Notes under the pieces: generated by a model | The model's database searches: none | Told to the model about the DNA's origin: nothing | Seen by the model: only the letters and a program-made list of their open reading frames with translations | Shown here: positions 5,075 to 22,757 of the stretch, one piece after another | Position numbering within the stretch: position 1 is the stretch's first letter | Layout: each line of letters starts with the position of its first letter | Program-made: the position numbers and the translations under genes | Assembly (NCBI GenBank): GCA_012718975.1 | Contig: JAAYBF010000121.1 | Location: forward strand, 26,534-90,533 | Direction of reading: 5' to 3' | From: Solirubrobacterales bacterium | GTDB lineage: Bacteria > Actinomycetota > Thermoleophilia > Solirubrobacterales > Thermoleophilaceae | Length of the DNA stretch: 64,000 nt

Positions 5075-5151
5075 GGGGCCGGCTGACAAGGACGCAGGGA
5101 GGCCATAGGCCGGTAGGCCATGGCCGACCGAGGACGCCGTCAGGCGGTTCC
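5075..5151 (-). ncRNA. composite hairpin element, copy 1 (candidate structured 3'UTR RNA/terminator)
   Basis: Minus strand GGAACCGCCTGACGGCGTCCTCGG...CTGCGTCCTTGTCAGCCGGCCCC; homologous to 22678-22757; begins 8 nt after the stop codon at 5160. Confidence 0.6.
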
Positions 5152-5159
5152 GCAGGCCG

Positions 5160-5615
5160 TCAGTTGTCGGACCCTAAGCGGTCCCAGCAGTAGATCTCGA
5201 TCGCCTCCGCGGCCAGCTCGGCCATCCGCTCCTGGGAGAGGAATGGGAGGACGGTGTCGATCGCCTGCTCCTCGCTGACGCCGGACTCGAAGGCGTCCTC
5301 GCCGCGGAAGCCGGCGGCGATGCGCAGAGCCTCGCGGCGGTGCTCGCCGAGGTGGCCGAACGCCTTGAGGAGGAAGTCCTTGTTGGCGATCGGCTGGCCG
5401 ACCTCGAGCGACGCGTGCCAGGCGGCGAGCATCGAGAGGTCGTCGTCGTCGAGGACCTCGACGGCCTTGGCGTAGTGGACGGCGAGCTCGTCCTCGGGGA
5501 TCTCGTCGACCCATGCGCGGACGACTTCGCCGAGCAGCTGCCGGCGCGCCTCGCGCCCGACGGCGTCGGCTACGACCCGGATGGCCTCCTGCGGCTCGAT
5601 GAAGCACAAGGGCAT
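5160..5615 (-). CDS. conserved hypothetical protein (~151 aa)
   Basis: MPLCFIEPQEAIRVVADAVGREARRQLLGEVVRAWVDE...WDRLGSDN; TACCTT-N6-ATG upstream. Confidence 0.75.
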   Translation of the reverse strand: MPLCFIEPQEAIRVVADAVGREARRQLLGEVVRAWVDEIPEDELAVHYAKAVEVLDDDDLSMLAAWHASLEVGQPIANKDFLLKAFGHLGEHRREALRIAAGFRGEDAFESGVSEEQAIDTVLPFLSQERMAELAAEAIEIYCWDRLGSDN

Positions 5616-5653
5616 GCCGAGAAGGTAGGGATGGGCCTGGACGGAACCGGCGG

Positions 5654-8600
5654 TCAAGCGGGCGGCTCGGGCGCGAGGGTGCGCTCGGGGGGCCAGGAGC
5701 AGAGGCCGCCCTGGCCGGGGCAGTCGGCGCAGAGGCCGTGCCAGGGGCGGTCGGAGGGCTGGAAGCGGCCGTCGGCGAGTGGGCGGACGCGGTCGCGGAG
5801 GCGGTCGGCGAGGGCGGGCTGGTCGGTGGCGGCGTAGGTGGCCGAGACCGGCTCGGCGGGCCGGTCGAGGAAGAGGTAGGCGACCTCGACGGCGGGGGCG
5901 CCGGACTGCAGCGCCGCGAGCGCGTAGACGAGCCGCTGGGTCGCGTAGTGGGCGTCGACGAGCTCGGCGGGGTCCTGGCCGTCGAGCAGGCGGTCGGTCT
6001 TGTAGTCGACGATCAGCACCCGGCCGGGCTCGCTGGCGTGGACGTCGACGACGCCGTTGATCAGGGTTCCGCGCCCGCCCGGCCGCTCCGACGGGAGCTG
6101 GAAGACGAACGGCAGCTCGGTGCGGACGCGGTCGGCGGCGGCGAGCCGGGCGCGCAGCGGCGAGTCGGCGAACGCCTGGACGAGCGCGGCGACGTCGGCG
6201 ACCTCGTGGTCGCGGACGGGCTCGCCGGCGCGTTCGATCAACGCCGTGATCGCGTCCGCGGCCGGCACGGCGGGATCGGACAGGTCGATCTCCTCCAGGA
6301 GCTGGTGGACGAGCGAGCCGCGCAGCGTCGGTGCCATCGCCTCCGGCTCGGGCGCGACGGGCATCCCGGGGACCTGGGCGCCGACGGCCGGCGCCGCGGT
6401 CGCCTCGCCGCCCGCGGCTCCGGCTGGCGCGCCCCCGTCCGGCGCGGCCTCGGCGAGCCCCGCGGCAACGGCCCGCCTCGGCGAGCGCGGCAGCCGCAGC
6501 ACCCGCTCGAGATAGAAGCGGTAGCCGCAGGCGGCGTGGCGCGCGAGGCCGGAGTAGCTGGTGCGGCTGACCGGGAGCGCGGGCGGCGGTGGCACGGCCG
6601 CGAGCGCTGGGGCGTCGAGCGCCTCGAGCCCGGCGGGCGGCGGCTCGGCCCGTTCGGGCGCGCGGTCGGCGGCCGGCAGGACGGCGTCGACGGTGTCGGG
6701 GCGCAGGACGGTCACCCCGATCGGCACGGATCGGCCGTCGAGGTCGCGGACGACCGTCGCGGCGGTCTCGATCTCGGGCAGCTCGGGGGCGAGCGCGCGC
6801 CAGACCCAGCGCATCGGCTCCTCGAGCGGCTCCTCCTCGCGGAGCTTGTCGAGGTCGGTGCCGCCACTGAGGATCAGGTGGCGCTCGGCGCGGGTGGCCG
6901 CGACGTAGAAGACGCGCTTCTCCTCCTCCTCGTCGGCGAGCTTCTGGCGCTCGCGGATGTCGCGCAGGCGGCTGCTGGCGACGCTGCCGCCGCCGAGCTG
7001 GGCGAGGCTGATGCCGACCGCGCCGTCGTCGGAGATCTGCAGCGACGAGCGGTCCTCGCGGCCCGGCTTGCCGAGGTCGGCGACGCAGACGACGGGGAAC
7101 TCGAGCCCCTTGGCGCGGTGGACGGTCATCAGCCGCACCGCCTGGACGTCCTCGGGCTCGAGCGGCGCCTCGCCCTGGCGGTCGCCGAGCTCGTCGCGCT
7201 CGGCGACGTAGTCGATGAACCCGCGCAGGTCGCGCCCCTCCTCGGCCTCGTACTCGCGCGCCAGCCGCATCAGCTTGCGGACGTTGGCCATCCGCCGCCG
7301 GCCCTGCTCCTGGGCGAGCAGGTGGAGGTCGTAGCCGCTCTCGGTGACGGCGCGGTCGATCAGCGCCTCCAGCGACCGCCGCGGCGCCCCGGCGCGCTCG
7401 CCGGCGAGCAGGGCGGCGAAGCGGGCGATCCGCTCGGCGTCGCGGGCGCCGAGCCGGTCTGCGAGCGACGCGTCGAGGTCGGCGACGACCGTCCACGGCT
7501 CGCGGCCCCGCCGCCGCGCCTCGTCGGCGACGACGACGAGCGCGTCGAGCGACACCCCGCCGAGCGGCGAGGCGAGCGCGGTGTAGAGCGCGAGGTCGTC
7601 GAGCGGGTTGGCGAGCGCGCCGAGGTAGGCGCGCAGGTCGCCGACCTGCTGGGCCGACCAGTACCCCCGTCCGCCCATGACGTAGGTCGGGATGCCGCGG
7701 TCCTCGAGCGCCCGCTCGAAGGCGGCGAGGTGGGTGGTCGCGCGCACCAGCACGACGACGTCGCCGGCGGCGCACTCCCCCGCCGCGATCAGCTGGTCGA
7801 TCCGCTTGGCGAGCATCCGCGCCTCGGCCGCGCGGTGCGGGACCACCTCGCGCAGCGACTCGCCGAAGGCCAGCTCAGGGTCGGGGCCGGCTCCGGCCGC
7901 GGCGTCGGCATCGAATCGCTCGCGCCAGCGCGAGCCGTTGTGGGGCCGATCGGCGACGAGCAGCTCGACGGCCGGCCCGTCGCCGAGCGGCGTCGCCGCC
8001 CCGCCCGCCCGCAGGCGCGGGAACCGCGCGCCCCAGACCGCGCCGAACAGCAGGTCGATCGCGCCGAGGACGGCGGGCGCGCTGCGGAAGTTCGCCGTCA
8101 GCGCCTCGAAGCGGCCGGCGCCGCGCGCCCGCTCGGCCTGGTCGCGGAAGACCGACACGTCGGCGTGGCGGAAGCGGTAGATCGACTGGAACTCGTCGCC
8201 GACGCGGAACATCCGCTCGCCGGCGATCCGCTCGAGCAGCTCGTTCTGGAGCGGGTTGGTGTCCTGGAACTCGTCCACGAGCACGTGGCGGAAGCGGCCG
8301 GCCCAGCGGCCGCGGACGACCTCGTCGCCGGCCAGCAGCCGGTTGGCGACCAGCTCGAGGTCGTCGAAGTCGAGCCCGGAGCGGTCGCGCTTGAGCGCCG
8401 CGTAGCGGTCCCCGTAGGCGCGCAGCAGGACGCGCAGCAGCGCGTGGTCGCGCAGCTCGTGGAGGTGGGTGACATGGCCGTGCAGCGCCTCGAGCGCCTC
8501 GCGGTAGGCGTCGCAGGCCTCGGTCTTCAGCGCGCCCGCGGCGCGACTCAAGGTCAGCTTCGCGAGCGCCGCCGGGTCGAGCGCCCCCACGGCGTCGCCG

Positions 8601-9301
8601 TGGCCGGCGTCCGCGAGCAGCAGCAAGCACCGTTCGAGCCGTTCGCGGCCCTCCGACACGCGCACCCCGTCCCCGGCGCCCTCGAGCTCGGCGAGCGCCG
8701 CCCGCGCGGTCGCGACCACCCGCTCCGGCTCGCCGCCGCCGGCCGGCGGCTCGATCTCCGGCAGCTCCGGCGCCTCCTGGCCGCGGCTGCGCAGGTGGCC
8801 GTATGCGGTGCGGGTCATCGCCGCGAGACGGTCGGGCGTGTAGGCGGCGACGAGCCGCAGCCGGTCGGCGCCGGCGCCGTCGTGGAGGAACTCGGCGAGC
8901 GCGCCGTCGAAGGCCTCGCCACCGAGCCGGTCGGACTCGAGCTGGTCGAGCACGCGGAACTCGGGGTCGATCCCGGCCGCGAGCGCGTGGGCGCGCAGCA
9001 GCTGGGCGCAGAAGCCGTGGATCGTCGAGATGAACGCCCCCTCGGCGGCGCGCGCGTCGGCGTGTCGACCGGCGGCGGCGAACCGCTCGCGCACGCGCGC
9101 CTTCAGCTCGGCGGCGGCCTTCTCGGTGAAGGTGATCGCGAGGATCTCGTCGATCGCGCAGCCGTCGTCGATCACTGCGGCGGCGATCCGCTCGACGAGC
9201 ACCGAGGTCTTGCCCGAGCCGGCCCCGGCGGCGACCAGCAGGCCGCCGTCGCGGCGGTCGATCGCCCGCCGCTGCTCGTCGGTGAAGGCGCGCGCGCTCA
9301 C
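5654..9301 (-). CDS. UvrD/AddA-like helicase with C-terminal PD-(D/E)XK nuclease domain
   Basis: VAAGAGSGKTSVLVERI Walker A; VDEFQDTNPLQ; VMTVHRAKGLEFPVV-type motif; VLIVDYKTD nuclease motif; GTG start overlaps upstream stop (GTGA). Confidence 0.9.
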   Translation of the reverse strand: MSARAFTDEQRRAIDRRDGGLLVAAGAGSGKTSVLVERIAAAVIDDGCAIDEILAITFTEKAAAELKARVRERFAAAGRHADARAAEGAFISTIHGFCAQLLRAHALAAGIDPEFRVLDQLESDRLGGEAFDGALAEFLHDGAGADRLRLVAAYTPDRLAAMTRTAYGHLRSRGQEAPELPEIEPPAGGGEPERVVATARAALAELEGAGDGVRVSEGRERLERCLLLLADAGHGDAVGALDPAALAKLTLSRAAGALKTEACDAYREALEALHGHVTHLHELRDHALLRVLLRAYGDRYAALKRDRSGLDFDDLELVANRLLAGDEVVRGRWAGRFRHVLVDEFQDTNPLQNELLERIAGERMFRVGDEFQSIYRFRHADVSVFRDQAERARGAGRFEALTANFRSAPAVLGAIDLLFGAVWGARFPRLRAGGAATPLGDGPAVELLVADRPHNGSRWRERFDADAAAGAGPDPELAFGESLREVVPHRAAEARMLAKRIDQLIAAGECAAGDVVVLVRATTHLAAFERALEDRGIPTYVMGGRGYWSAQQVGDLRAYLGALANPLDDLALYTALASPLGGVSLDALVVVADEARRRGREPWTVVADLDASLADRLGARDAERIARFAALLAGERAGAPRRSLEALIDRAVTESGYDLHLLAQEQGRRRMANVRKLMRLAREYEAEEGRDLRGFIDYVAERDELGDRQGEAPLEPEDVQAVRLMTVHRAKGLEFPVVCVADLGKPGREDRSSLQISDDGAVGISLAQLGGGSVASSRLRDIRERQKLADEEEEKRVFYVAATRAERHLILSGGTDLDKLREEEPLEEPMRWVWRALAPELPEIETAATVVRDLDGRSVPIGVTVLRPDTVDAVLPAADRAPERAEPPPAGLEALDAPALAAVPPPPALPVSRTSYSGLARHAACGYRFYLERVLRLPRSPRRAVAAGLAEAAPDGGAPAGAAGGEATAAPAVGAQVPGMPVAPEPEAMAPTLRGSLVHQLLEEIDLSDPAVPAADAITALIERAGEPVRDHEVADVAALVQAFADSPLRARLAAADRVRTELPFVFQLPSERPGGRGTLINGVVDVHASEPGRVLIVDYKTDRLLDGQDPAELVDAHYATQRLVYALAALQSGAPAVEVAYLFLDRPAEPVSATYAATDQPALADRLRDRVRPLADGRFQPSDRPWHGLCADCPGQGGLCSWPPERTLAPEPPA

Positions 9302-12261
9302 TGCTCGATCCGGCAGATCGACGGGTGCGAGCAGCCGCCGCGGTAGGCGCAGGAGCCGGGGCACGAGCGGAGCCTGCCCTCCCCCATCTCGGCGGCGGCG
9401 GTCGCGATCGCGCCGCGCGCCCAGTCGCGCAGCTCCGCCAGCGCGGCGGGCTCGAGCACGTCGCCGCCGACGAAGTCGCCGCCGAGCGCGGCGGCGTGGT
9501 CGGCGTCGACGGCGCCGCGCGGGCGGCGGTCGTCGCCGGAGAGCGGCACGTAGAGGCCGGCGACCGCCTCGACGCCGAGCAGCCGCTCGGCGACCAGCAT
9601 GTAGAGCGCCGCCTGGAGGCGGCCCTTCGGCTCCCACTTCTCGGCGCTGTAGTCGTTGACGCGGCCGCTCTTGTAGTCGAGCACGGCGACCGCGTCGCCG
9701 CGGCGGTCGACGCGGTCGATCTTGCCGCGCACGCGCAGCCCGTCGCCGAGGTCGACCTCGGGGTGGTCGGCGTCGGGCAGGCCGAACGCCAGCTCGAGCG
9801 CCGCCGGCTCGAACTCGGACTCGACACGGGCCTCGTGGTCGAGGTGGCGCAGCAGCTGGAACTCGAGCCGCCGCAGCGCGGCGCGCATCCGCGGCGCGCG
9901 CAGCGTCGCGCCGCGCCGCTCGGCCTCCTCGGCGAGCGCCTCGAGCAGGATCTCCTCGGCGCGCGGCAGGTTGGCGGGCGTGGGCCGGCGGTCTCCGGTG
10001 CGCTCGTGCAGGCGGCGGTAGGTGAGCTCGAGCACCGTGTGCGCGAAGGCGCCCTGGACGAGCCGCTCGGGGTCGGGCTCGAGCGCGACGGGCCGCAGCA
10101 CGTCCTCGACGAGCCAGTTGACCGGGCAGCCGGCGAACCGCTCGATCGCCCCGGCGGAGACGGCGCCACGCGCGCCCAGCGCGGCGAGCGCGGCCTCGAG
10201 CGCGACCGGCCCGATCGGCGCGGGGGGCGGGTCGCGGCGGCCGGCGGCGACGGCCCGCTCCCACTCGGCCGGCGTCGGGGCGTCGTCGGGAGTCCAGGTG
10301 ACGTCGGCGAGCGACCGCCGCCGCGCCCGCTCGCGCAGGCCGGGCAGCACCCGCTCGACGTCGGCGAGGAAGAACGACGGCCGCTCGGACTCCCCCTCCT
10401 CGCCGGAGGTGCGGGCGCTGAGCACCAGCAGCCGCTCGGCGCGCGAGGCGCAGACGTAGAGGAGGTAGCGCTCGCGGTCGAGCTGGGACTCGCGCAGCGG
10501 CAGCGCGAGCCCGGACGCGGCGGCGATCTCGCGCCGGTCGGCGTCGGAGAGGAACGGGTCGGCGCCGCCCCCGGCGGGGAACTCGCCCTCCTGCAGGCCG
10601 CAGACGAAGACCGCCTGGTAGCGGCGGGCGCGGATCTCGGTCGGCGCGGCGACCGCGACGCGGCCCGGCTGGGGCTCCTCGCCGACGCGCAGCTCCTGGG
10701 CGGCGAGGGTGTCCGCGACGGTCGCGAGGTCGACGGCGATCCCGCCGCCGCGGGCGAGGCCGCGCAGGTCCGCGAGCGCGGCGCCGACGGCCGCGACGGC
10801 GCGCGCGTCGTCGACCTCCGCCCCGGCGAGGACGTGCGCGGCGCGCAGGTGCGGCGCGGCGAGCAGCGCGTCGGCGCGGCGGCGGACCTCGTCGAGGAGG
10901 TCGTCGCCGCGCGCCGCCGCGAGGCGGTCGAGCTCGCGCAGCGGGAACGGGCCGATGCCCCTGGTCGCGTCGTCGCCCTCCCACAGCTCGCGGGCGCGGG
11001 CGGCGCTGGCCGCGCCGTCGCGGCGGACGGCGACCTCGAGCCGGTCGGCGTAGACCGGCTCGCGCAGCCGGCCCGGGGTGCGCAGGTAGGCGAGCAGGTC
11101 GTCGGCGGTCCCGGTCCCGGCGGCGCAGCGCAGCAGCGCGAGCAGGCCGCGGCCGAGGGCGGTGTGTCCAAGCGCCAGCCGGCGGTCGATCGAGTACGGG
11201 ATGCCGTAGGCGCCGAAGACCTGCTCGATCGTCGTCGCGTAGGCGCGCGGGTCGCGCAGCACGACAGCGACCTCGCCGGCCGGCGTGCCGGCGCGCAGCA
11301 GCGCCAGCACCTCGGCGGCGCACAGCTCGACCTCGGCGCGGCGGCCGCCGGCGAGGTGGAGCCGGACCGTTCCCCCGGGGTCGGCGACCGTCGGCGGCGC
11401 GTCCTCGAAGAGCCCGCGCTCGAGCGCCGACAGGACGGCGCGCGAGTCTTCGTCGTAGTAGTCGTCGAGCGGCGCCAGCTCGGTCTCCTCGGCGCCGGCG
11501 TCGAGCAGCCGGCGGCGGGCGTGGGCGGTCGCCTCGAAGGCGGTCCGGCCGTGCTCGTAGGGCAGCGAGACGCAGACGTCGGCACCGGCGTCGCCGGCGA
11601 GCGCGGAGAGCGCGGCCAGCTCGAGCGGGGTGAAGTCGTCGAAGCCGTAGACGAAGACGGGCGTGGAGCCCCAGCTCGCCGGCCGTTGACGCAGCGCGGC
11701 GACGGCGTTCCAGGCGTACAGCTCGTCGTCGAGCAGGCCGGCGGCGTCGAGGCGCTCGCGGTAGCGGCGGTAGATCGCGGCGACCTCGTCGGCGTAGCGG
11801 CGGCGCGGGCCGTCGCCGGCCCAGGCGCGCAGCGCGGCGGTCAGGCGGGCCGGCTCGACGAGCGCGGGGCCGGCGGCGGTGCGCTCGGCCAGCGACCGCT
11901 CGACCTCGGCGACGAACCGTGTGGCAGCCCGGGCGAACCCGGGCCGCGCCGCCGACTCGGCGAGCGCCTCGAGCCCGGCCGACGCGGCCGCCTCGGCGAC
12001 GATCAGCTCGCGCTGGAGCCGGGTCGCGACGCGGCCGCCGGCGCCGGCGCGGCGGGCGATCTCGACGAACAGCCGCTTGAAGCGCAGCACCCCGACGCCG
12101 AACACCGCCCCGCGCTCGGCCAGCTCGCGCTGGTTGTGCTCGACGTCCTCGAAGGCGGGCACGACGAGCAGCGGCTGCTCGTCGACGCGGGCGCGCAGGC
12201 CGCCGAGGACCGCGCCGGCCTTGGCGGCGTTCGCGGGACCGGTTACGAGCTTCAGCGGCAC
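9298..12261 (-). CDS. AddB-like ATP-dependent helicase/PD-(D/E)XK nuclease subunit
   Basis: VAVLDYKSGR nuclease motif; IERFAGCPVNWLVEDVLRP ... CPGSCAYRGGC Fe-S type cysteines; partner of the AddA-like gene. Confidence 0.85.
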   Translation of the reverse strand: MPLKLVTGPANAAKAGAVLGGLRARVDEQPLLVVPAFEDVEHNQRELAERGAVFGVGVLRFKRLFVEIARRAGAGGRVATRLQRELIVAEAAASAGLEALAESAARPGFARAATRFVAEVERSLAERTAAGPALVEPARLTAALRAWAGDGPRRRYADEVAAIYRRYRERLDAAGLLDDELYAWNAVAALRQRPASWGSTPVFVYGFDDFTPLELAALSALAGDAGADVCVSLPYEHGRTAFEATAHARRRLLDAGAEETELAPLDDYYDEDSRAVLSALERGLFEDAPPTVADPGGTVRLHLAGGRRAEVELCAAEVLALLRAGTPAGEVAVVLRDPRAYATTIEQVFGAYGIPYSIDRRLALGHTALGRGLLALLRCAAGTGTADDLLAYLRTPGRLREPVYADRLEVAVRRDGAASAARARELWEGDDATRGIGPFPLRELDRLAAARGDDLLDEVRRRADALLAAPHLRAAHVLAGAEVDDARAVAAVGAALADLRGLARGGGIAVDLATVADTLAAQELRVGEEPQPGRVAVAAPTEIRARRYQAVFVCGLQEGEFPAGGGADPFLSDADRREIAAASGLALPLRESQLDRERYLLYVCASRAERLLVLSARTSGEEGESERPSFFLADVERVLPGLRERARRRSLADVTWTPDDAPTPAEWERAVAAGRRDPPPAPIGPVALEAALAALGARGAVSAGAIERFAGCPVNWLVEDVLRPVALEPDPERLVQGAFAHTVLELTYRRLHERTGDRRPTPANLPRAEEILLEALAEEAERRGATLRAPRMRAALRRLEFQLLRHLDHEARVESEFEPAALELAFGLPDADHPEVDLGDGLRVRGKIDRVDRRGDAVAVLDYKSGRVNDYSAEKWEPKGRLQAALYMLVAERLLGVEAVAGLYVPLSGDDRRPRGAVDADHAAALGGDFVGGDVLEPAALAELRDWARGAIATAAAEMGEGRLRSCPGSCAYRGGCSHPSICRIEQ

Positions 12262-12285
12262 GGGGCCGTCAGGTATACGGCCAGC

Positions 12286-12930
12286 TCAGGACGGCTGACG
12301 GTCGCCGGCGGCGAGCGCGCCGCGGCGCAGCGCGTCGGCGAGCGCCTCGGCGTAGCGCTGGGCGGGCAGCATCGGCGGGGCGTCCTGCAGCTCCCAGCCG
12401 ACCGCGGGGCGCTGGACCCAGCGGGCGACGCGAACGGCGCCGTCATCTAGCGGCTCGACGCGCAGCTCCTCCTTGAAGTCGCCGCTGCGGCCGCGGCTGA
12501 CCCCGGAGCCGCCGTCGCCGCCGTCGGCGGGCTCGGTCTGCAGCGCGCCGGTCAGCTTGGCGGCGTCGCGCGCCTGGAGGGCCTCGCCGCTGCGCTCGAC
12601 CAGGTCGAGCAGCTCGCCGGCGGCGAGGACGGGCGCCTCGGGGACGAGCGCCGAGCCGCGCCAGCGGCCGAGCCGGACACCGCCGGGGACCCGCTCGAGC
12701 CGGACGAGCGAGCGCATGCCCTCGTCGTCGACGTGGACCGGCGTGGCGACGTGCGGGCCGCTGAAGGCGGGCGCCGCGGGAGCCTTCTCGCCGCTGGCTC
12801 TGCGCCGGGCCGACTGGCCCGATCCGCCGCTGCGCCGCCGCGTGGCGGAGCGGTCCGGGTCGAGCACCGTGCCCTTGGAGCAGATCTGGCAGTCGGCGGT
12901 GAACCGGTTGTGGCGGCAGAACAGCGACAC
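12286..12930 (-). CDS. hypothetical protein with N-terminal CxxHxxxxxxCxxC-type cluster
   Basis: MSLFCRHNRFTADCQICSKG; same strand as and directly upstream of AddAB-like genes; TATCCT-N9-GTG. Confidence 0.7.
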   Translation of the reverse strand: MSLFCRHNRFTADCQICSKGTVLDPDRSATRRRSGGSGQSARRRASGEKAPAAPAFSGPHVATPVHVDDEGMRSLVRLERVPGGVRLGRWRGSALVPEAPVLAAGELLDLVERSGEALQARDAAKLTGALQTEPADGGDGGSGVSRGRSGDFKEELRVEPLDDGAVRVARWVQRPAVGWELQDAPPMLPAQRYAEALADALRRGALAAGDRQPS

Positions 12931-12965
12931 GGCTGTCGCAGGATAGTGGGCGCGGGCCTGCCAAG

Positions 12966-14087
12966 ATGCGCGCGGTGGCTACGGCGATCGTGTCCGACCT
13001 GCACCTCGGGACCGTCTCGGGCGCCGACCTGGCGCGCGGCGGACCGGCGCTCGACCGGCTGCTCGACGTGCTGGCGGGCGCGGAGCGGATCGTGCTCCTC
13101 GGCGACCTGCTCGAGCTGCGCGAGCGTCCGGCGGCGGCGGTGCTCGAGGACGTCGCGCCGGCGCTGCGGCGGATCGGCGAGGCGGCCGCCGGCAAGCGGC
13201 TGACGGTCGTGCCGGGCAACCACGACCACCAGCTCGTGGCGCCGGCGCTCGAGCGGGCGCGGCTGGCCGGCGGGACGCTCGCGATCGCAGCGGAGCATCC
13301 GCCCGAGCCGGGCGAGCTGGCGGCGCGGGTGGCGGAGCTGATGCCGGCGACCGACGTCGCGTTCTCCTACCCGGGCGTCTGGCTGCGCGACGACGTGTTC
13401 GCCACCCACGGCCACTACCTCGACGCCCATCTGACGGTGCCGCGCGTCGAGTGCCTGATCGCGGCGGCGGTCGAGCGGTTCGCGACGGGCGTCGGCCCGG
13501 AGGGGCCGCAGGCGGCGGCCGACTACGAGGCGATCCTCGCCCCGATCTACGCGCTCTCGCACGCGGTCGCCCAGAACGCCCGCGCGCATCCGCCGGCGCG
13601 CCGCAACAACCTCTCGCGCGACGTCTGGCGGATCGCCGCGACCGACGGCGACGGCCGGCTGCCTGACCGGCTGCGCCGCCGCTTCGTCGGCCAGCTCGCG
13701 ATCCCGGCGGCGGTTGCGGCCGTCAACGCGGTCGGCCTCGGTCCCTTCAGCGCCGAGCTGACGCCGACCGAGCTGCGCGCCGCGGGCCTGCGCGCAATCG
13801 CGACGGTCGCCGACCGCCTCGGCATCGCCGACGCCCACGTCGTCTTCGGCCACACCCACCGCGCCGGCCCGCTGCCCGCCGACGACGCCTCCACCTGGAC
13901 GCTTCCCGGCGGCGGAACCCTCACCAACACCGGCAGCTGGGTCGACGAGGCCCACTTCACCGCCTCCGACGGCCCCTCCAACCCCTACTGGCCCGGCCGC
14001 ATCGCCTGGGTACACGCCGGCGGCGGCCCACCCAGCCTCGAGACGGTCATCGAGCCGACCGAGCGCTCCGCAGCGCGCCGGGGCTAG
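12966..14087 (+). CDS. metallophosphoesterase
   Basis: IVSDLHLG, LLGDLLEL, VVPGNHDHQ, FGHTHRAG motifs. Confidence 0.9.
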   Translation: MRAVATAIVSDLHLGTVSGADLARGGPALDRLLDVLAGAERIVLLGDLLELRERPAAAVLEDVAPALRRIGEAAAGKRLTVVPGNHDHQLVAPALERARLAGGTLAIAAEHPPEPGELAARVAELMPATDVAFSYPGVWLRDDVFATHGHYLDAHLTVPRVECLIAAAVERFATGVGPEGPQAAADYEAILAPIYALSHAVAQNARAHPPARRNNLSRDVWRIAATDGDGRLPDRLRRRFVGQLAIPAAVAAVNAVGLGPFSAELTPTELRAAGLRAIATVADRLGIADAHVVFGHTHRAGPLPADDASTWTLPGGGTLTNTGSWVDEAHFTASDGPSNPYWPGRIAWVHAGGGPPSLETVIEPTERSAARRG

Positions 14088-14103
14088 CCGCGCCCGATCA
14101 GCG

Positions 14104-14347: not shown

Positions 14348-14398
14348 GCGCTCCTGAGCGGAGGCCATTGGGCCTCGGCGCCGAGCCCACCTTCACCG

Positions 14399-14892
14399 CC
14401 CCGCCGTTTCCCGGCCGTCTTCAGGGTCCATCCATCATCTCCCGGCTATCTCTCAGCCCATCCATCGTTTGCCGCGCATAGACCGGCAAACGCCGGACCG
14501 GCGCCGGGAGGGCCTGAAAACACCGGGTTGGCATGCGGAAGGCCAGCAAACGTCGGACCGGCGCGGGGAGGCCGGAAAGGTCGGGGCGGGTGTCGAACGA
14601 TCGGCAAACGCCGGACCCGAAGCCCAAGGACACACCCACGCCTGGACCTCCGCTCCCACCCAAAAAAGGGCCGGCGCGTAGCGCCCCTCCACCGTTGGCC
14701 TCCGCGGGTGGCGACGGTGACGACCTTCGCGCGCAGGCGAAGCGCGGAGCTACTCCCCAGCCAACGCCCCACGGACCGCCGGCACCACGCTCGTGGAGAG
14801 CGCTAAGCGCAGCCGAGCACGGGACCTCGGCCGCAGGCCGTCCGTCTCAGTAGCGAAGCGTCAGTCCCAACACCGGAGACAGGACCCGCGGG
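14399..14892 (-). repeat. dispersed ~490 bp repeat, copy 2
   Basis: Reverse complement aligns with 4550-5038. Confidence 0.85.
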
Positions 14893-14932
14893 CAGAGCGG
14901 CCAGACCCTCGGCCGCGACGACCACCGACCTC

Positions 14933-17203
14933 CTACGCCGCCGGCTCCTCGATCGCCGGCTGGTCCGCCGCCACCTTGTCCTCGGCCGCGGCCGCCGCCT
15001 CCTCGCGCTCCTTCATCGGCCGGTTGGCCCACTCCTCGTCGAACTCGACCTTCCAGCGGCCGGGGGCGTCGTCGCGCGGCTCGATCTTGAGCTTGGCGCG
15101 GAACGAGCGGCCGGAGCGGCCGCGGAACCCGGTGACCTGCTTGGCGGTGCGGCCGATCGGCGGCTCGTCGCCGCGGTCGATCGACTCCTTGAGGCTGGCC
15201 ATCAGCTCCTTGGCGACGGTGACGGGCAGGTTCTTGCGCGCCTTCTGCTTCCAGATGACGAAGCCGCAGCCGGGGTCGTCGCGCGACCAGCAGGAGTAGC
15301 CCTTGCGGTTCTCGGTGACCTCGCGGCCGCAGACGGGGCAGGGGCCGAGCTTGGCGCGCTCGATCTTGACGCCCTTGAGCTTGTCGAGCTCCTCGACGGT
15401 GGAGCCGATGAACTTGGCGATGTCGCGCATGAACGCGGGCCGGGAGTCCTCGCCCTTCTCGATCAGGGCGAGCCGGCGCTCCCAGTCGCCGGTGAGCTCG
15501 GCGGAGGTGAGGGCGTGCTGGCCGAGCAGGCGGATGACCTGGACGCCCTTCTCGGTGGCGTGGAGGGCGCGGCCCTCGCGCTCGATGTAGCCGACGTCGA
15601 TCAGCCGCTCGATGATCGAGGCGCGGGTGGCGGGGGTGCCGATCCCGGAGTCCTTCATCGCCTCGCGCAGCTCGGCGTCCTCGATCTCCTTGCCGGCGGT
15701 CTCCATGGCGGCGAGCAGGGATGCCTCGGTGAAGCGCCTGGGCGGCTGGGTCTCCTTGCGTAGCGACTCGACCTTCAGGGTGGCGACGGTCTCGCCCTGC
15801 TCGAGCTTGGGCAGGAGCTGGTCGCCGCCGGAGTCGTCGTCGCCCTTGCCCTCGCCCTGGGCCTCCTCGCCGTAGACGGCGCGCCAGCCGGGGACGACGA
15901 GGACCCGGCCGCTGGTGCGGAAGACGTTGTCCTCGACGGTGGTCTCGACGCGGGTGCGCTCGAACTCGGCGTCGGGGTGGAAGACGGCGAGGAACCGCTT
16001 GGCGACGAGGTCGTAGATCTTGAGCTCGTCGGCGCCCATCTTGGAGAGGTTGTGCTCGGACTTGGTCGGGATGATCGCGTGGTGGTCCTCGACCTTGGCG
16101 TCGTTGACGACGCGGCCGAGCGGCAGCTCGGCGAGCGACTGGACGTACTCGGAGGCCTTGCGGTAGGCGGGGTTGTGGCCGACGAGGCCGGCGATCGGCC
16201 GGATGTCGGGGACCATGTCGCCGGTCAGGAAGCGGGAGTTGGTGCGCGGGTAGGTGAGCGCCTTGTGCTCCTCGTAGAGGCGCTGGGCGGCGGCGAGGGT
16301 GCGGCGGGCGGAGAAGCCGTGGAGGGTGTTGGCGTGGCGCTGCAGCGACGTGAGGTCGTAGAGCAGTTGCGCCCGCTCGGTCTCCTTCTTCTTCTCGAGC
16401 TTGGTGATCGCGCCGTCGCGCTCGAGGCAGGCGGCGACGATCTTCTTCGCCTCGTCCTCGGGGAGCCGCTTGCCGCCCATGTAGCGGCCGGCGTAGCGGC
16501 GGTCGCCCTCGGCGGCGAAGCGTGCCTCGACGAGCCAGTAGGGCTCGGGCTTGAAGGCGCGGATCTCCTCCTCGCGGCGGGCGACGAGCGCGAGCGTGGG
16601 CGTCTGGACGCGGCCGAGCGACACGGCGCCGTCGAAGGCGGCGCGGAGGCGGATCGACGCGGCGCGGGTGGCGTTCATGCCGACGATCCAGTCGGCCTCC
16701 GAGCGTGAGCGGGCGGCGGCCTCCAGCGACTCCATCTCCTCGCCGGGGCGCAGCGAGGCGAAGGCCTGCTCGATCGCGGTGCGGGTCATCGACGACAGCC
16801 AGAGCCGCTTGACGGGCGGCTTGATCTTGGCGGTGTCGTAGACGTAGGCGAAGATCAGCTCGCCCTCGCGGCCGGCGTCGCAGGCGTTGATGACGTCGTC
16901 GACGTCGTCGCGGGCCATCAGCCGGTGGATGACCTTGAGCTGCTTGCCGGAGCGCTCGTCGTTGGGGACGAGCTTGAACTCGTCGGGGACGATCGGCAGG
17001 TCGGCGAAGCGCCACTTCTTGAGCTTGGGGTCGTAGGCGTCGGGCTCGGCGAGGCCGACGAGGTGGCCGACGGCCCAGGTGATGACGTAGTCGTCGCCCT
17101 CGAGGAACGCCTTGTCCTTGCCCTGCTTGAACGATCCGGGCAGCGCGGACGCGAGGTCACGCGCGACGGACGGCTTCTCTGCGACTACGAGTGTCTTGCC
17201 CAT
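14933..17203 (-). CDS. topB: DNA topoisomerase III-like type IA topoisomerase
   Basis: MGKTLVVAEKPSVARDLASAL; DAGREGELIF; YPRTNSRFLT active-site region; C-terminal CPVCGREV zinc finger. Confidence 0.92.
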   Translation of the reverse strand: MGKTLVVAEKPSVARDLASALPGSFKQGKDKAFLEGDDYVITWAVGHLVGLAEPDAYDPKLKKWRFADLPIVPDEFKLVPNDERSGKQLKVIHRLMARDDVDDVINACDAGREGELIFAYVYDTAKIKPPVKRLWLSSMTRTAIEQAFASLRPGEEMESLEAAARSRSEADWIVGMNATRAASIRLRAAFDGAVSLGRVQTPTLALVARREEEIRAFKPEPYWLVEARFAAEGDRRYAGRYMGGKRLPEDEAKKIVAACLERDGAITKLEKKKETERAQLLYDLTSLQRHANTLHGFSARRTLAAAQRLYEEHKALTYPRTNSRFLTGDMVPDIRPIAGLVGHNPAYRKASEYVQSLAELPLGRVVNDAKVEDHHAIIPTKSEHNLSKMGADELKIYDLVAKRFLAVFHPDAEFERTRVETTVEDNVFRTSGRVLVVPGWRAVYGEEAQGEGKGDDDSGGDQLLPKLEQGETVATLKVESLRKETQPPRRFTEASLLAAMETAGKEIEDAELREAMKDSGIGTPATRASIIERLIDVGYIEREGRALHATEKGVQVIRLLGQHALTSAELTGDWERRLALIEKGEDSRPAFMRDIAKFIGSTVEELDKLKGVKIERAKLGPCPVCGREVTENRKGYSCWSRDDPGCGFVIWKQKARKNLPVTVAKELMASLKESIDRGDEPPIGRTAKQVTGFRGRSGRSFRAKLKIEPRDDAPGRWKVEFDEEWANRPMKEREEAAAAAEDKVAADQPAIEEPAA

Positions 17204-17392
17204 GAGGAGTTCCCCACCTTATGCGGGTTCGGGGTCCGCGAGGGTAGACGACGCGGCGTAATTCCGGCGCCGGATGCCCGTTGGAGGGGTGCGATGCCGC
17301 TCTCCGAGTCGATCCTCCCGCCGCCTCTCGCCCTCGCCGGCGCGGGTGGCGGGCGCTGGAACGTCGCGCCCCGGCGCGCTACCTTGCGGAGG

Positions 17393-18874
17393 ATGTCGGC
17401 GGCGGCAGCATCCGGGGAGGCGCCCGAGCCGGACCTGGTCGCGGACGAGGCGCGCCTGGCGCGCGCGGCGGCGGGTGGCGACGGCGGTGCGTTCGCGACC
17501 CTGTACGAGCGCTACGAGCGGCGCGCCTACAACCTCGCCTACCGGGTCTCGGGCTCCGAGGACGACGCGGCCGACGCGGTCCAGGACGCGTTCGTGAGCG
17601 TGTTGCGGCGGCTGCCCTCGTTGGAGGGCCGCGAGCTGGCGTTCGGCTCCTACCTGTTCACCGCGACCCGCAACGCCTGCTACGACCTGATGGCCAAGCG
17701 CAAGCGGGCGGAGCCGAGCGACGCGATCCCCGAGAGCGCGGCCCCGATCGGCGCGGCGGCCGGCGGCGGCTTCGGCCTCGATCCGGGCGACCCCGACGAG
17801 GATCCCGATCGCCGGCTGCTGCTGGAGAGCCAGCAGGAGGAGATCCGGGCGGCGAACGCGCGGCTGCCGGAGCGCCAGCGCGAGGTGCTGGCGCTGCGCG
17901 AGCTGGAGGAGCTCTCCTACGACGAGATCGCCGAGATCATGGGGATGAACCGCAACTCGGTCGCCCAGCTGATCTCGCGTGCCCGGATCAAGCTGCGCGA
18001 CGAGTTGCGCGGCACGGCGCTGGCGTCGGTCGCGGCCTCCTCGCCGGACTGCGAGCGGGCGCTGCCGCTGATCGCCCTGCGCGACGACGGCCAGCTCGCC
18101 GAGGGCGGCGAGGACGCCGCCTGGCTCGACGCCCACATGGGCGGCTGCCACACCTGCCGGCTGGGGATGGAGGCGATGCAGGAGGCGGGTACCTCCTACC
18201 GTGCCTGGGTCCCGCTGGCGGCGGCTCCGTTCCTGTTCCGCGACACGCTCGCCAAGGCGGCGGAGCTGACCGGCGCGGATTGGAGCGAGACGATCGCCGA
18301 GCGCGCCCCGCGTCACGATCCGACGGCCTTCCACCCGGGCATGCCGCCGCTGTACCGGACGGCGACGGCGGCGGCCGGCCGGCGGCGCCGGCGCGGGCTC
18401 TGGGTCGCGGGCGGCCTGGGGACCGCGGCGCTGCTGGCGCTGGTGGTCGGCATCGCGGCGGGTGGCGACTCCCCCACTCCCCGCCCGGCGGCCGAGACGG
18501 TCGACGCGCCGGCGCAGCAGCAGCCACCGCCGACGACCGCCGAGAAGCCCGACGAGCCGCGCAAGCGCGCCAAGCGGCGCAAGCCCGCCGCCGACCCCGA
18601 GCCCGCCCCGGCGGCCGCCGCGCCGACGCCGGAGCCGGAGCCTTCGGCCGCCGCGCCGGCGCCCGCCGCGCCGGGTCCGGCCCCCGAGCCGGCCCCCGCC
18701 CCCACGCCGAAGCCGACGCCGCGGCCGCAGAGCCCGCCGGCGCGAACGCCGCCGCCCCCCGCCCCCGACCCTGAGCCGCCGCCGGTGGTCGAGGAGCCGC
18801 CGGTGGTCGAGGAGCCGCCGCCGGCGCCGGAGCCGCCGCCGCGATCGCCGAACGACCCGCCGACGATCGACTGA
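17393..18874 (+). CDS. sigma-70 (ECF-type) factor fused to HxxxCxxC zinc-finger-like segment, TM helix and Pro-rich tail
   Basis: Sigma2 YERRAYNLAYRVSGSEDDAADAVQDAFVSVLRRL; sigma4 LPERQREVLALRELEELSYDEIAEIMGMNRNSVAQLISRARIKLR; HMGGCHTC; TM GLWVAGGLGTAALLALVVGIAAG; PPVVEEPPVVEEPP tail. Confidence 0.85.
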   Translation: MSAAAASGEAPEPDLVADEARLARAAAGGDGGAFATLYERYERRAYNLAYRVSGSEDDAADAVQDAFVSVLRRLPSLEGRELAFGSYLFTATRNACYDLMAKRKRAEPSDAIPESAAPIGAAAGGGFGLDPGDPDEDPDRRLLLESQQEEIRAANARLPERQREVLALRELEELSYDEIAEIMGMNRNSVAQLISRARIKLRDELRGTALASVAASSPDCERALPLIALRDDGQLAEGGEDAAWLDAHMGGCHTCRLGMEAMQEAGTSYRAWVPLAAAPFLFRDTLAKAAELTGADWSETIAERAPRHDPTAFHPGMPPLYRTATAAAGRRRRRGLWVAGGLGTAALLALVVGIAAGGDSPTPRPAAETVDAPAQQQPPPTTAEKPDEPRKRAKRRKPAADPEPAPAAAAPTPEPEPSAAAPAPAAPGPAPEPAPAPTPKPTPRPQSPPARTPPPPAPDPEPPPVVEEPPVVEEPPPAPEPPPRSPNDPPTID

Positions 18875-18877
18875 GCC

Positions 18878-19753
18878 TCAGTAGGCGATCGGGTCGAAGC
18901 CGCCCCAGCCGGACGGGTCGGCGGGCTTGCGCCCGGGACAGCGCTGGATGCCGGTCTCAAACGGCAGCCGGACCATCACCGACCCGGTGTTGTTGCGCTC
19001 GTTGGACTCGTAGATCCCGTCGCGCGGGTCGGCGGTGTGGACGAGGTCGAAGCAGCCGCGCAGGCCGGTCACGTCGATCCACTGCTCGTGGTAGCCGGGC
19101 GGGTAGACGTCCGACCAGCCGACCGAGGTCCCGAGCACGACCCGCTGCCGTGACGGCGACTGGTTGCAGGCCGGGTAGACGAACCGCCGCGGCGAGCGCG
19201 GCAGCCGCGGCCGGCTGTGGTCGAGGTCGCGCAGGCAGTAGCTGACCTTCGGCCCGCGGCGGACCCTCTTGCGCCGCTCGCCGCGACGGTCGAGCCGCCA
19301 GAGCTCGAAGCGCGCCGCCCACTGGAACTTCCAGTAGGCGCCCTGGCCGGGGATCGCCTTGAACAGCAGCCGCGCGCCGGTGTCGATCCAGAGCCGCCCG
19401 CCGCCGCGGCGGTGGATCCGCTGGCGGGCGCGCATCCCGCGCGGGCGGTCGCGCACGCCGAGCAGCTCGGCGGGCCCGCGGCCGATGCTGTCGATCGAGT
19501 TGCCGGCGCGCAGCACCACTCGGCCGGGGCGCACGAACGGGTCGGTCACCAGGCCGAACGGGGGCTTCATCCGCAGGTCCGGACAGAGCAGCTTGGCCCG
19601 CTGCTCGCGGTCGAGGCACGGGTTGGGCGGCTTGCCGGCCCGCTCGCGGCGGTCCTGCGCGGAGGCGGCGGGGGCGGCGAGCGCCGCGGCGGCCGCGACG
19701 GCGACCAGCAGCAGCGCGGCCACCGTCCGGGGTGCGGGGAGGAAACGGGGCAA
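18878..19753 (-). CDS. lysyl oxidase family secreted protein
   Basis: GTSVGWSDVYPPGYHEQWIDVTGL..CFDLVHTADP...IYESNERNNTGSV signature. Confidence 0.8.
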   Translation of the reverse strand: MPRFLPAPRTVAALLLVAVAAAAALAAPAASAQDRRERAGKPPNPCLDREQRAKLLCPDLRMKPPFGLVTDPFVRPGRVVLRAGNSIDSIGRGPAELLGVRDRPRGMRARQRIHRRGGGRLWIDTGARLLFKAIPGQGAYWKFQWAARFELWRLDRRGERRKRVRRGPKVSYCLRDLDHSRPRLPRSPRRFVYPACNQSPSRQRVVLGTSVGWSDVYPPGYHEQWIDVTGLRGCFDLVHTADPRDGIYESNERNNTGSVMVRLPFETGIQRCPGRKPADPSGWGGFDPIAY

Positions 19754-19792
19754 GACGTCTGTTGTAGCGGACCGCGCCGCCGGAGCGTCCGG

Positions 19793-20941
19793 TCAGCGGA
19801 CGCAGGGGCCCGTGTCGACGGGGCCGGACGCCCGCTGCAGCGCCGCGGCGACGACCGCGTTGGGGACCCCGAACCCGGAGGGGCGCGCGCTCTCGCTCGC
19901 CGAGGCGAAGACGGTCGCCAGCACCCGCCCGTCGCCGTCGACGACCGGCCCGCCGGAGTTGCCGGAGCGCACCAGCGCGCGGAAGGAGACGATCTCCCGC
20001 TCGACCGGCCCGCGGCCGTAGGCGTCCTGGCTGATGGCGGAGCGGGTCGCGCCGATCCGCGCGGGGCGGACGTCGAAGGGACCGTTCTCGGGGAAGCCGA
20101 GCACCGCCCCGGCGGTGCCCGAGCCGGGGTCGGCGACCAGCTCGAGCGCCGCGACGCCGCGCGCGTCGGGTACGGCGAGCAGCGCGAGGTCGTTGCCGAC
20201 GTCGAACCAGACCGCCTCGGCGTCCAGCTCGCCGCCGTCGCCGCCGACGTCGACGGTCGTGTCGTCCTGCCCGGCGACGACGTGCGCGTTGGTGACGACG
20301 ATCCCGTCGGCGACGACCCAACCGGTGCCCTGGACGCCGAGGCCGCAGGCGGTGCCGAGCACCCGCACGACGCTCTCGCCGGCGCGGCGGACCTCGGGGT
20401 CCCGGGCGACGGCCGAGTCGGGCGGGGCGACGTCGGCGCCGGGACCGTCGATCCGCGGGAACGGGTCGAAGCGGGCGAGCGTCCGCAGCAGCGGCCCCGA
20501 CGGCGGCAGGACCGCGTTGAGCTCGCGCAGGATCAGCGAGCGCTGGATCGGCTCGCGCAGCTCGCGCGCGCCGGGGGTGTGCAGCGCGACGGCGCCGACG
20601 ATCCAGGCGAGGCCGAGCGCGAGCGCCGCCGCGAGCAGCGCCCCGCCGATCCCGTCGATGACCCCGAGCGTCTCGCCGAACCGGCGCCGCAGCCGCCAGC
20701 CGAGCACCTCCGCGAGCGAGGCGACAAGCGCCCCCAGGAACAGCGCGGCGATCAACGCGACCAGCGGCGCCCAGGGCGATTGCGACCCCTCCGAGAGCAG
20801 CGTCGGAGCAAGACGCGCGCCGGCGAAGGCCCCCGCCGCGAAGCCCGCCAGGGTGAGCGCGCCGACGACGAGTCCGCGCCGGAAGCCGATCGCGAGCGCG
20901 ATGCCGGCGACGGCGACGATCACCCAGTCGAGCGGAGTCAT
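19793..20941 (-). CDS. MarP-type membrane serine protease (CvpA-like TM domain + trypsin-like domain)
   Basis: MTPLDWVIVAVAGIALAIGFRRGLVVGAL; NAHVVAG; NDLALLAV; GNSGGPVV catalytic motifs. Confidence 0.88.
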   Translation of the reverse strand: MTPLDWVIVAVAGIALAIGFRRGLVVGALTLAGFAAGAFAGARLAPTLLSEGSQSPWAPLVALIAALFLGALVASLAEVLGWRLRRRFGETLGVIDGIGGALLAAALALGLAWIVGAVALHTPGARELREPIQRSLILRELNAVLPPSGPLLRTLARFDPFPRIDGPGADVAPPDSAVARDPEVRRAGESVVRVLGTACGLGVQGTGWVVADGIVVTNAHVVAGQDDTTVDVGGDGGELDAEAVWFDVGNDLALLAVPDARGVAALELVADPGSGTAGAVLGFPENGPFDVRPARIGATRSAISQDAYGRGPVEREIVSFRALVRSGNSGGPVVDGDGRVLATVFASASESARPSGFGVPNAVVAAALQRASGPVDTGPCVR

Positions 20942-20970
20942 GGGCGCTTGACGGTAGCCTCCCCTCTACG

Positions 20971-22668
20971 GTGGCGCGTGAGATGACCCTGGAGCGGAGG
21001 CGGCGCCTGACGCGCCGCGCCCTGCCCGCCGCCGGGGCGGTCGCCGCCGTCGCGTTCTTCGCCGGCCTGGCGGTCGGCGGCGGCGGCGAGTCCGAGGCGG
21101 CGCGCGTCGCGCGCGACTTCTCCGCCGCCTGGGTCCGCGGCGACTACGGCGCGATGCACGGGATGCTGACCCCGCAGACGCGTGCGGCCGTCACCGCGGA
21201 GCAGTTCGCCGACAGCTATCGCGGCGCGGCCGAGACGGCCACCCAGCGGCGGATGGCGGTCGCGGCGCCCCAGACCGACGGCGACCGTGCGCTGATCGCG
21301 GTCGACGTCGAGACGGCGGTCTTCGGGCCGGTCGCGGGCCAGGTCGCCTTCGCGGTGCTGGAGGACGGCATCGACTGGCGCCCGCATCTCGTCTTCCCCG
21401 GGCTGCGTCCCGGCGAGTCGCTCGACCGCCGGACCGAGGCCCCGGAGCGCGCGCCGCTGCTCGCGGCCGACGGCCAGACGATCGCCGAGGGCCCGGCCGA
21501 CGCGCGCGTCCAGCCGCTGACCGCGACCGCGTCGATCGCCGGCACGCTCGCCGCGAGCGACGACGCGGCGGTCCGCGAGTCGCTCTACGCGCGTGGCTTC
21601 CCGGAGGACACGCCGGTCGGGTCCAACGGTCTGGAGCGGGTCTTCGAGGAGCAGCTCGCGGGCCGGCCGGGCGGCGAGCTGCTCGCGGGGTCGCGCGTGC
21701 TGGCCTCGAGCGAGCCGCGGCCGGCGGCGCCGGTGGAGACGACGATCGTGCCGTCGGTGCAGGAGGCGGCCGATGTCGGCCTCGCCGGCCGGCTCGGCGG
21801 GGTCGCGGCGATGGACCCGCGCAGCGGCGAGATCCTCGCGCTGGCGGGGATCGCCTTCTCCGCCCCCCAGCCGCCCGGCTCGACGTTCAAGATCGTGACG
21901 ACCGCCGCCGCGCTCGAGGACGGCAAGGTGAAGATGTCCGACGAGTACCCGATCGAGACGGCGGCGACGATCGACGGGGTCGAGCTCGAGAACGCCAACG
22001 GCGAGTACTGCGGCGGCACGCTCGCCGAGGCGTTCGCGCACTCCTGCAACTCGGTGTTCGCCCCGATGGGGGTCGAGGTCGGGGCCGAGCGGCTGGTCGA
22101 GGAGGCCGAGCAGTTCGGCTGGAACGCCGATCCGGGGATCCCCGGCGCCGCCGAGAGCACGATCCCGCCGGCGAGCGAGATCACCTCGCCGCTGGAGGTG
22201 GGCTCGACCGCGATCGGCCAGTACAAGACGCTCGCGACGACGCTGGAGATGGCGACGGTCGCCCAGACGATCGCCAACGGCGGCGTGCGGCTGCCGGCGA
22301 CGCTCGCCCCGCGCCGGGGCCGCGGTGACGGGGTCCGGGCGGTATCGCCGAAGGTCGCCCGCCAGATCACCGAGCTGATGACCGGCGTCGTCGCCTACGG
22401 CACCGGCACCCTGGCCGCCGTCGAGGGCGTCGAGGTGGCGGGCAAGACCGGCACCGCCGAGCTGGGCGACACCCGCGGCGACGACCCCGAGGCCGCCGCC
22501 CGCGACGGCGACCCGTCGAACACCGACGCCTGGTTCACAGCCTTCGCCCCCGCCGACGACCCGCGCGTCGTGGTCAGCGTGATGCTCGTCCGCAACGGCT
22601 CCGGCGGCGCGACCGCCGCCCCAGCCGCCCAGGGCGTCCTCGTCGCCGGGCTCAAGCGCGAGAGCTGA
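20971..22668 (+). CDS. penicillin-binding protein (transpeptidase) with NTF2-like N-terminal domain
   Basis: GSTFKIVT (SxxK), SCNS (SxN), AGKTGTAEL (KTG); start could be ATG 20983. Confidence 0.85.
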   Translation: MAREMTLERRRRLTRRALPAAGAVAAVAFFAGLAVGGGGESEAARVARDFSAAWVRGDYGAMHGMLTPQTRAAVTAEQFADSYRGAAETATQRRMAVAAPQTDGDRALIAVDVETAVFGPVAGQVAFAVLEDGIDWRPHLVFPGLRPGESLDRRTEAPERAPLLAADGQTIAEGPADARVQPLTATASIAGTLAASDDAAVRESLYARGFPEDTPVGSNGLERVFEEQLAGRPGGELLAGSRVLASSEPRPAAPVETTIVPSVQEAADVGLAGRLGGVAAMDPRSGEILALAGIAFSAPQPPGSTFKIVTTAAALEDGKVKMSDEYPIETAATIDGVELENANGEYCGGTLAEAFAHSCNSVFAPMGVEVGAERLVEEAEQFGWNADPGIPGAAESTIPPASEITSPLEVGSTAIGQYKTLATTLEMATVAQTIANGGVRLPATLAPRRGRGDGVRAVSPKVARQITELMTGVVAYGTGTLAAVEGVEVAGKTGTAELGDTRGDDPEAAARDGDPSNTDAWFTAFAPADDPRVVVSVMLVRNGSGGATAAPAAQGVLVAGLKRES

Positions 22669-22677
22669 GGCGCGCTA

Positions 22678-22757
22678 GGGGCCGCCTGGCGGCGTCCTCG
22701 GCCCCCTCACGTGCCAGAGGCACGCCACGGGGGCCTGCGTCCTTGCCAGCCGGCCCC
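22678..22757 (+). ncRNA. composite hairpin element, copy 2 (candidate structured 3'UTR RNA/terminator)
   Basis: 12-bp outer stem with single C.C mismatch, internal loop with GCGTCCT on both strands, 7-bp middle and 6-bp apical stems; begins 9 nt after the PBP stop. Confidence 0.65.

What the first reader, a model, noticed from the sequence alone, without database searches (positions are those of the whole stretch)
5075..22757. Candidate novel structured RNA: composite hairpin 8-9 nt after stop codons with covariation and duplicated GCGTCCT internal loop
Seen directly: 22678-22757 (+) and 5151-5075 (-) share CCGCCTGRCGGCGTCCTCGG...CTGCGTCCTTGYCAGCCGGCCCC. The outer stem GGGGCCG-C-CTGGC / GCCAG-C-CGGCCCC keeps a C.C mismatch in both copies. 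One pair covaries (G-C in copy 2, A-T in copy 1). Both strands of the next internal loop carry GCGTCCT in both copies. The distal hairpin differs completely in sequence yet still folds (GGCCCCC/GGGGGCC + CGTGCC-AGA-GGCACG versus GGCCATGGCC-TACC-GGCC-T-ATGGCC). Each copy starts 8-9 nt after a stop codon in the sense orientation of the gene. It may be a terminator class, a 3'UTR-derived sRNA, or a protein/anti-SD target loop; only one covarying pair is available here, so this is a lead.
Basis: partly seen in the sequence, partly recalled or inferred. Interest (0 to 1): 0.75.

Follow-up and report, generated by a model that had tools for sequence, protein, structure and literature searches.

The report
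Mobile DNA palindromes at gene ends
The two hairpins are copies of a previously uncatalogued, dispersed palindromic DNA element of Thermoleophilia and other Actinomycetota that sits right at the 3' ends of genes (rpoB, groEL, glnA, ribosomal-protein and tRNA genes); it has all the covariation of a structured RNA, but the evidence points to a mobile piece of DNA.

Summary
The host genome has 34 copies (E<=1.3e-9; the next hit is 0.0035). 52 of 61 related genomes have it (up to 45 copies), and more distant families of the phylum do too. Rfam has no match. Covariation is overwhelming, and one pair inside the 'duplicated GCGTCCT loop' covaries C-G/A-U/G-C. Copies abut gene 3' ends (150 sense vs 14 antisense upstream genes); stems often include the stop codon or tRNA end.

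The RNA reading is not supported. (1) Sites are patchy: an element fills rpoB/rpoC and L14/L24/L5 junctions that are 0-15 nt in relatives, including a same-genus genome. (2) Class-mate genome G392 has over 40 near-identical ~183-bp copies with terminal inverted repeats and 3-bp TWA target duplications (14/20 exact). (3) On the gene-sense strand A.C mismatches outnumber G.U 189:39; wobble and G.A pairs are tolerated on the opposite strand whichever way neighbouring genes run, so the conserved fold belongs to one DNA strand. (4) No U-tract.

Best reading: a MITE-like palindromic mobile element with a conserved core and covarying arms. RAYT (Y1) transposase and a true integron integrase were not detected in the host. 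The transposase and any host function remain unknown.

The parts
22665..22770 (+). copy 1, whole palindrome: CTGAGGCGCG..CGCACCTCAG, stop codon TGA 22666-22668 inside the outer arm
22691..22699 (+). copy 1, 5' conserved box GGCGTCCTC
22735..22745 (+). copy 1, 3' conserved box CTGCGTCCTTG
22671..22764 (+). copy 1, covariance-model match (79.5 bits, E 9.6e-18); G000:C64:49204-49297
20983..22668 (+). upstream gene: penicillin-binding protein transpeptidase (PF00905), ends at the element
22790..23362 (-). convergent downstream gene (gene call; no Pfam hit for the longer ORF 22790-23749)
5051..5174 (-). copy 2, whole palindrome: GGGTCCG-aca-ACTGACGG..CGTCAGT-agc-CGGACCC; includes the last codons and the TGA (5162-5160) of the upstream gene
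5130..5138 (-). copy 2, 5' conserved box GGCGTCCTC
5087..5097 (-). copy 2, 3' conserved box CTGCGTCCTTG
5068..5158 (-). copy 2, covariance-model match (65 bits, E 9.0e-14); G000:C64:31601-31691
5160..5615 (-). upstream gene of copy 2 (conserved C-terminus ..RLGSDN*); orthologues in relatives with or without an element

Best explanation
The two hairpins belong to a dispersed, non-coding, MITE-like palindromic DNA element: about 105-125 bp in the host family, about 165-190 bp in distant families. Its conserved part is a core of two boxes (GGCGT[C][N]TC .. CTGC[N']TCCTT) around a small hairpin; all stems and outer arms vary but stay paired. It spreads by insertion (shown from filled and empty sites and from a recent burst in one genome) and nearly always settles exactly at a gene's 3' end, with the gene reading into it. 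The preserved fold is that of one DNA strand, the strand antisense to the adjoining gene, which carries G.T wobbles and G.A pairs; I infer that this single-strand hairpin is what the mobilising enzyme or a host factor recognises. After insertion the arms keep matching the local sequence (stop codon, last codons, tRNA end or next gene's ribosome-binding site), most simply by template switching between the arms (inferred). Effects on the host, such as 3'-end protection, termination or translational coupling, are possible by-products and untested.
For: Multi-copy: 34 in the own genome, up to 45 in relatives, patchy in the phylum. Insertion: rpoB-rpoC spacer 163 nt with the element against 0-15 nt in 10 other genomes of the family, and an 86-88-nt internally deleted relic in two; L14/L24 and L24/L5 filled in G031 but 3 nt and 0 nt in same-genus G054, and mostly close-packed in other genomes of the family; patchy at orthologues of sigma, SufB, prs and the window's own gene. 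Recent activity: over 40 copies 88-100% identical in G392 with TIR GAATCTATCTCAAAAGGC and exact 3-bp TTA or TAA duplications in 14 of 20, mixed in 1. Placement: 150 sense vs 14 antisense; stop usage like background; directly after several tRNA genes. DNA strand: G.U 39 vs A.C 189 after dropping conserved columns, 32 of 35 positions in the same direction, same in tandem, convergent and reversed contexts; Py.Py 461 vs Pu.Pu 68; antisense strand more stable in 169 of 177 with DNA parameters. Arms copy local sequence: 12/122 mirror >=11 of the last 12 CDS nt against 0.2% permuted; orthologous copies in G003 and G002 changed TGA..TCA to TAG..CTA together.
Against: No transposase identified; target duplications are clear only in G392, and in the host family the ends are inverted (CTGAG..CTCAG), not directly repeated. 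Insertion precisely at gene ends in one orientation is also what a functional 3'-end element would show. A single-strand fold and a direct target duplication are not usually features of the same transposition chemistry. The mirror effect deep into coding sequence is seen in only about 10% of copies. Only two Pfam transposase families and the integron integrase were tested.
Confidence: 0.75

Rival explanations
1. A class of transcription terminators or 3'-end protecting mRNA hairpins: the sense-strand RNA folds after the stop codon or tRNA end, stops RNA polymerase or blocks 3' exonucleases, and spread because it is useful.
For: Sense orientation 150:14 and near-zero distance to stop codons; present after tRNAs, groEL, glnA, ftsZ and other housekeeping genes; very stable hairpins.
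Against: No U-tract: 4 of 174 copies have >=5 T in 9 nt and none at window copy 1. G.U avoided on this strand. Copies inside rpoB-rpoC and ribosomal-protein operons, and several own-genome copies lie 10-40 nt before the next co-directional gene. Most orthologues lack it.
Confidence: 0.13
2. An attC-like recombination site: a hairpin of the bottom strand at the 3' end of genes, used by a tyrosine recombinase of the integron kind.
For: Same placement and same folded strand as attC sites (bottom strand, gene upstream), arms covary without sequence conservation, conserved unpaired bases.
Against: Integron integrase above cut-off in 1 of 61 relatives and not in the host; flanking genes are housekeeping genes in fixed order, not cassettes; multiplied copies with 3-bp target duplications. 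The attC core sites (RYYYAAC/GTTRRRY, from memory) were not seen on reading the copies.
Confidence: 0.05
3. A REP/RAYT system: short palindromes mobilised by an IS200/IS605-like Y1 transposase.
For: Dispersed palindromes downstream of genes; the boxes contain CGTC, the tag of one REP superfamily (PMC3733652).
Against: Y1 transposase (PF01797) not found in the host or in copy-rich G016, G047, G051; element is 105-190 bp rather than 20-40; target duplications in G392, which Y1 enzymes are not known to make (own knowledge).
Confidence: 0.05

Closest known systems
MITEs of the ERIC/RUP/Correia kind (palindromic small mobile sequences; PMC2229807 reviews such elements, abstract seen; family details from memory)
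   Same: Non-coding, 100-200 bp, imperfect palindromes, dispersed between genes; in G392 with TIRs and short target duplications.
   Different: Conserved part is the core, not the terminal repeats; arms are locus-specific and covary; near-exclusive placement at gene 3' ends in one orientation; no parent transposon identified.
REP elements, CGTC-tagged superfamily (PMC3733652)
   Same: Palindromes, mostly downstream of coding regions, no dedicated transposase known, CGTC motif in the boxes.
   Different: Three to nine times longer, CGTC on both arms as a direct repeat, multi-loop structure, base pairing extends through the stop codon.
attC sites of integrons (own knowledge)
   Same: Folded bottom strand at the 3' end of a gene; structure conserved more than sequence.
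   Different: No integrase in the host, no cassettes, no RYYYAAC/GTTRRRY boxes seen.
Intrinsic terminators (own knowledge)
   Same: GC-rich hairpin after the stop codon.
   Different: No U-tract, internal conserved boxes, strand signature on the other strand, also inside operons.

Membership tests
MITE | many non-coding copies of a short element, patchy between relatives | tested here: met
MITE | terminal inverted repeats shared by copies | tested here: inconclusive
   met in G392; in the host genome the arms are paired but differ between copies
MITE | direct target-site duplication | tested here: inconclusive
   3-bp TTA/TAA in 14 of 20 G392 copies; not seen in the host family
MITE | derivation from an identifiable autonomous transposon | tested here: inconclusive
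   one DDE_Tnp_1 gene in G392 has none of the element's TIR or boxes nearby; other transposase families not searched
REP/RAYT | Y1 (RAYT) transposase in the genome | tested here: not met
   PF01797 absent from the host and copy-rich relatives
REP/RAYT | 20-40-bp palindrome with GTAG or CGTC foot | tested here: not met
   105-190 bp; CGTC inside both boxes, not as a terminal foot
integron attC | integron integrase in the genome | tested here: not met
   TIGR02249 above cut-off in 1 of 61 relatives, not the host
integron attC | R box RYYYAAC..GTTRRRY | not tested
   no systematic scan; not seen on reading the aligned copies
intrinsic terminator | U-tract after the hairpin | tested here: not met
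intrinsic terminator | ends transcription | not testable with these tools
   needs Term-seq or reporter
structured RNA family in Rfam | match to a family | tested here: not met
   no match at gathering threshold in the window or at E<=1 in four loci
structured RNA | covariation with G.U tolerated on the transcribed strand | tested here: not met
   G.U 39 vs A.C 189 on the sense strand; G.U 6.8% of pairs in tRNAs of the same loci

The most novel reading that the evidence does not exclude
A new class of strand-specific, single-strand-hairpin mobile element that targets gene 3' ends and rebuilds its outer arms from the target (mirroring the stop codon, tRNA end or ribosome-binding site), so that insertion in essential operons is harmless; its mobilising enzyme would recognise the folded core rather than terminal repeats.
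Probability: 0.25. Interest if true: 0.85.

Novelty: new variant of a known kind. Interest (0 to 1): 0.62.

Why it matters
It is a clear case where textbook covariation, normally taken as proof of a functional RNA, is found in what looks like mobile DNA; the G.U against A.C strand test separates the two readings and could be applied to other 'novel RNA' candidates. It also describes a large uncatalogued repeat family in Thermoleophilia and related Actinomycetota that inserts between essential co-transcribed genes such as rpoB/rpoC without apparent disruption, which raises a testable question about how it finds gene ends and what moves it.

Tried and rejected
TA-dinucleotide or stop-codon targeting: rejected, stop usage next to elements (TGA 91, TAG 39, TAA 10) is close to background (443, 253, 61). 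RAYT mobilisation: rejected for the host. Integron: rejected for the host. Integron-like cassette array in G031: rejected, it is a ribosomal-protein operon. DDE_Tnp_1 gene of G392 as the autonomous parent: no element ends around it. Element-like boxes near a transposase in G006: chance, they lie 314 nt apart with no matching fold. Copies on plasmids or phages: none. First gene-calling model locked on the wrong frame and was replaced by a GC-position-seeded one. Literature searches found no description in these organisms.

Full report
Observation. Both hairpins are present as described and fold far better than dinucleotide shuffles, the antisense strand even better than the sense strand. Rfam has no match.

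Family. A blastn search of the own genome gave 20 places. An alignment of 16 copies shows two nearly invariant boxes, GGCGTC[C/A]TC and CTGC[G/T]TCCTTG, and variable stems. Pair counts on a hand-written structure beat all 500 shuffles and all slid controls. A covariance model finds 34 copies in the own genome with a clean gap to noise, copies in 52 of 61 relatives, 31 of 36 genera, and with a broader model in 29 of 397 genomes spread over the phylum. Named hosts of the commonest form are Solirubrobacterales, Solirubrobacteraceae (Conexibacter), Thermoleophilaceae and unnamed Actinomycetota MAGs. On 86 distinct copies the covariation score is 0.492 against 0.115 shuffled, and the pair hidden inside the 'internal loop' exists as C-G (59), A-U (23) and G-C (2).

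Position. In the own genome 30 of 31 distinct copies follow a gene in sense orientation, most within 10 nt of its stop codon; two follow tRNA-Ser genes, and in relatives copies follow tRNA-His, -Arg, -Lys and -Val genes. Over 178 copies 150 have the upstream gene in sense and 14 in antisense, and most of the 14 abut the 3' end of the gene on their other side. Upstream genes include homologues of groEL, glnA, ftsZ, a sigma factor, sufB, prs, rpsG and rpmB (named by me from the protein sequences, not by a family search). In distant families the element fills the whole space between stop and start codons inside ribosomal-protein operons (L22/S3, L5/S14, L14/L24/L5) and between rpoB and rpoC, its 3' arm then often carrying the ribosome-binding site (GGAGG or similar).

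Insertion, not a fixed feature. Of 13 genomes of that family, rpoB and rpoC are 0-15 nt apart in ten, 163 nt apart with the element in one, and 86-88 nt apart with an internally deleted relic in two. In G031 the L14/L24 and L24/L5 junctions hold elements; same-genus G054 has 3 nt and 0 nt there, and other genomes of the family mostly a few nucleotides (some larger L14/L24 figures in that output come from a misplaced L14 stop). In the host family, orthologues of the sigma factor, SufB, prs and the window's own gene are patchily occupied; one sigma site (G010) keeps only the outer arms. In G392 over 40 copies are 88-100% identical over about 183 bp; of 20 examined, 6 are flanked by TTA/TTA, 8 by TAA/TAA and only one by TTA/TAA, a true 3-bp target duplication.

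DNA, not RNA. If the mRNA hairpin were selected, G.U pairs should be tolerated on the sense strand. They are not: core stems have 19 G.U, 32 A.C and 2642 Watson-Crick cells, against 6.8% G.U in tRNAs of the same loci (ARAGORN cannot report A.C, so that control is one-sided). In the arms, after removing conserved wobble columns, there are 39 G.U and 189 A.C, 32 positions one way and 3 the other. Mismatches are pyrimidine-pyrimidine on the sense strand (461 against 68), that is G.A on the other strand, and the antisense strand is the more stable in 160 of 177 copies with RNA parameters and 169 of 177 with DNA parameters. The bias is the same in tandem, convergent and reversed contexts (76:17, 40:13, 15:3), so it belongs to the element and not to the transcripts of its neighbours. 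These counts come from related sequences, so exact probabilities should not be read into them.

Arms that follow the target. In 12 of 122 copies at least 11 of the last 12 CDS nucleotides (stop included) are mirrored in the 3' arm, against 0.2% when arms are permuted among copies. For the window's own gene, the host (GGGTCCGACAACTGA) and G007 (GGGAAGCGACAACTGA) differ at a serine codon and each 3' arm matches its own version; orthologous sigma copies read TGA..TCA in G003 and TAG..CTA in G002. I infer template switching between the arms as the cause; the strand bias in wobble pairs needs selection on the bottom-strand fold in addition.

What it is not. No U-tract; no Y1 transposase in the host; no integron integrase above cut-off in the host; no plasmid or phage copies. 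The mobilising enzyme is unknown: the one DDE_Tnp_1 gene in G392 is not bounded by element ends.

Comparison. It works like a palindromic MITE; membership is met for copy number and patchiness, inconclusive for TIRs, target duplication and parent transposon. It differs from REP elements in size, tag position and lack of RAYT, and resembles attC sites in placement and folded strand without the integron machinery. Shown: family, covariation, placement, insertion, strand signature. Inferred: mobilisation through the folded bottom strand, arm rebuilding by template switching, and any host effect. The REP literature reports that palindromes within 15 nt of a stop codon can lower translation (PMC12306157), so an effect on the upstream gene is worth testing.

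Noticed in passing
G392 loci L362-L398: Class-mate genome of only 1.8 Mb carries more than 40 near-identical copies of the element, a recent burst.
   Followed up: partly
L007/L041/L043 (G000:C132:7314-7505): Two tandem copies of the element, 100 bp apart, after one gene.
   Followed up: no
L105 (G031:C26:1-2400): Three elements within one ribosomal-protein operon, each with a stop codon at the 5' end and a GGAG(G) ribosome-binding site at the 3' end; suggests translational coupling by a ribosome opening the outer stem.
   Followed up: partly
L278, L279: 86-88-nt relics between rpoB and rpoC with the core deleted but the outer GTG..CAC arms kept.
   Followed up: partly
L283, L310 (G001): Runs of N just after genes that carry an element in the host; long palindromes may break assemblies, so copy numbers in drafts are probably underestimates.
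   Followed up: no
window 6170-6253 (+): ARAGORN reports a tRNA of unknown type inside a coding region; probably a false positive.
   Followed up: no
L358 (G039:C12:36631-37569): A full-length integron integrase in one relative of the same order.
   Followed up: no
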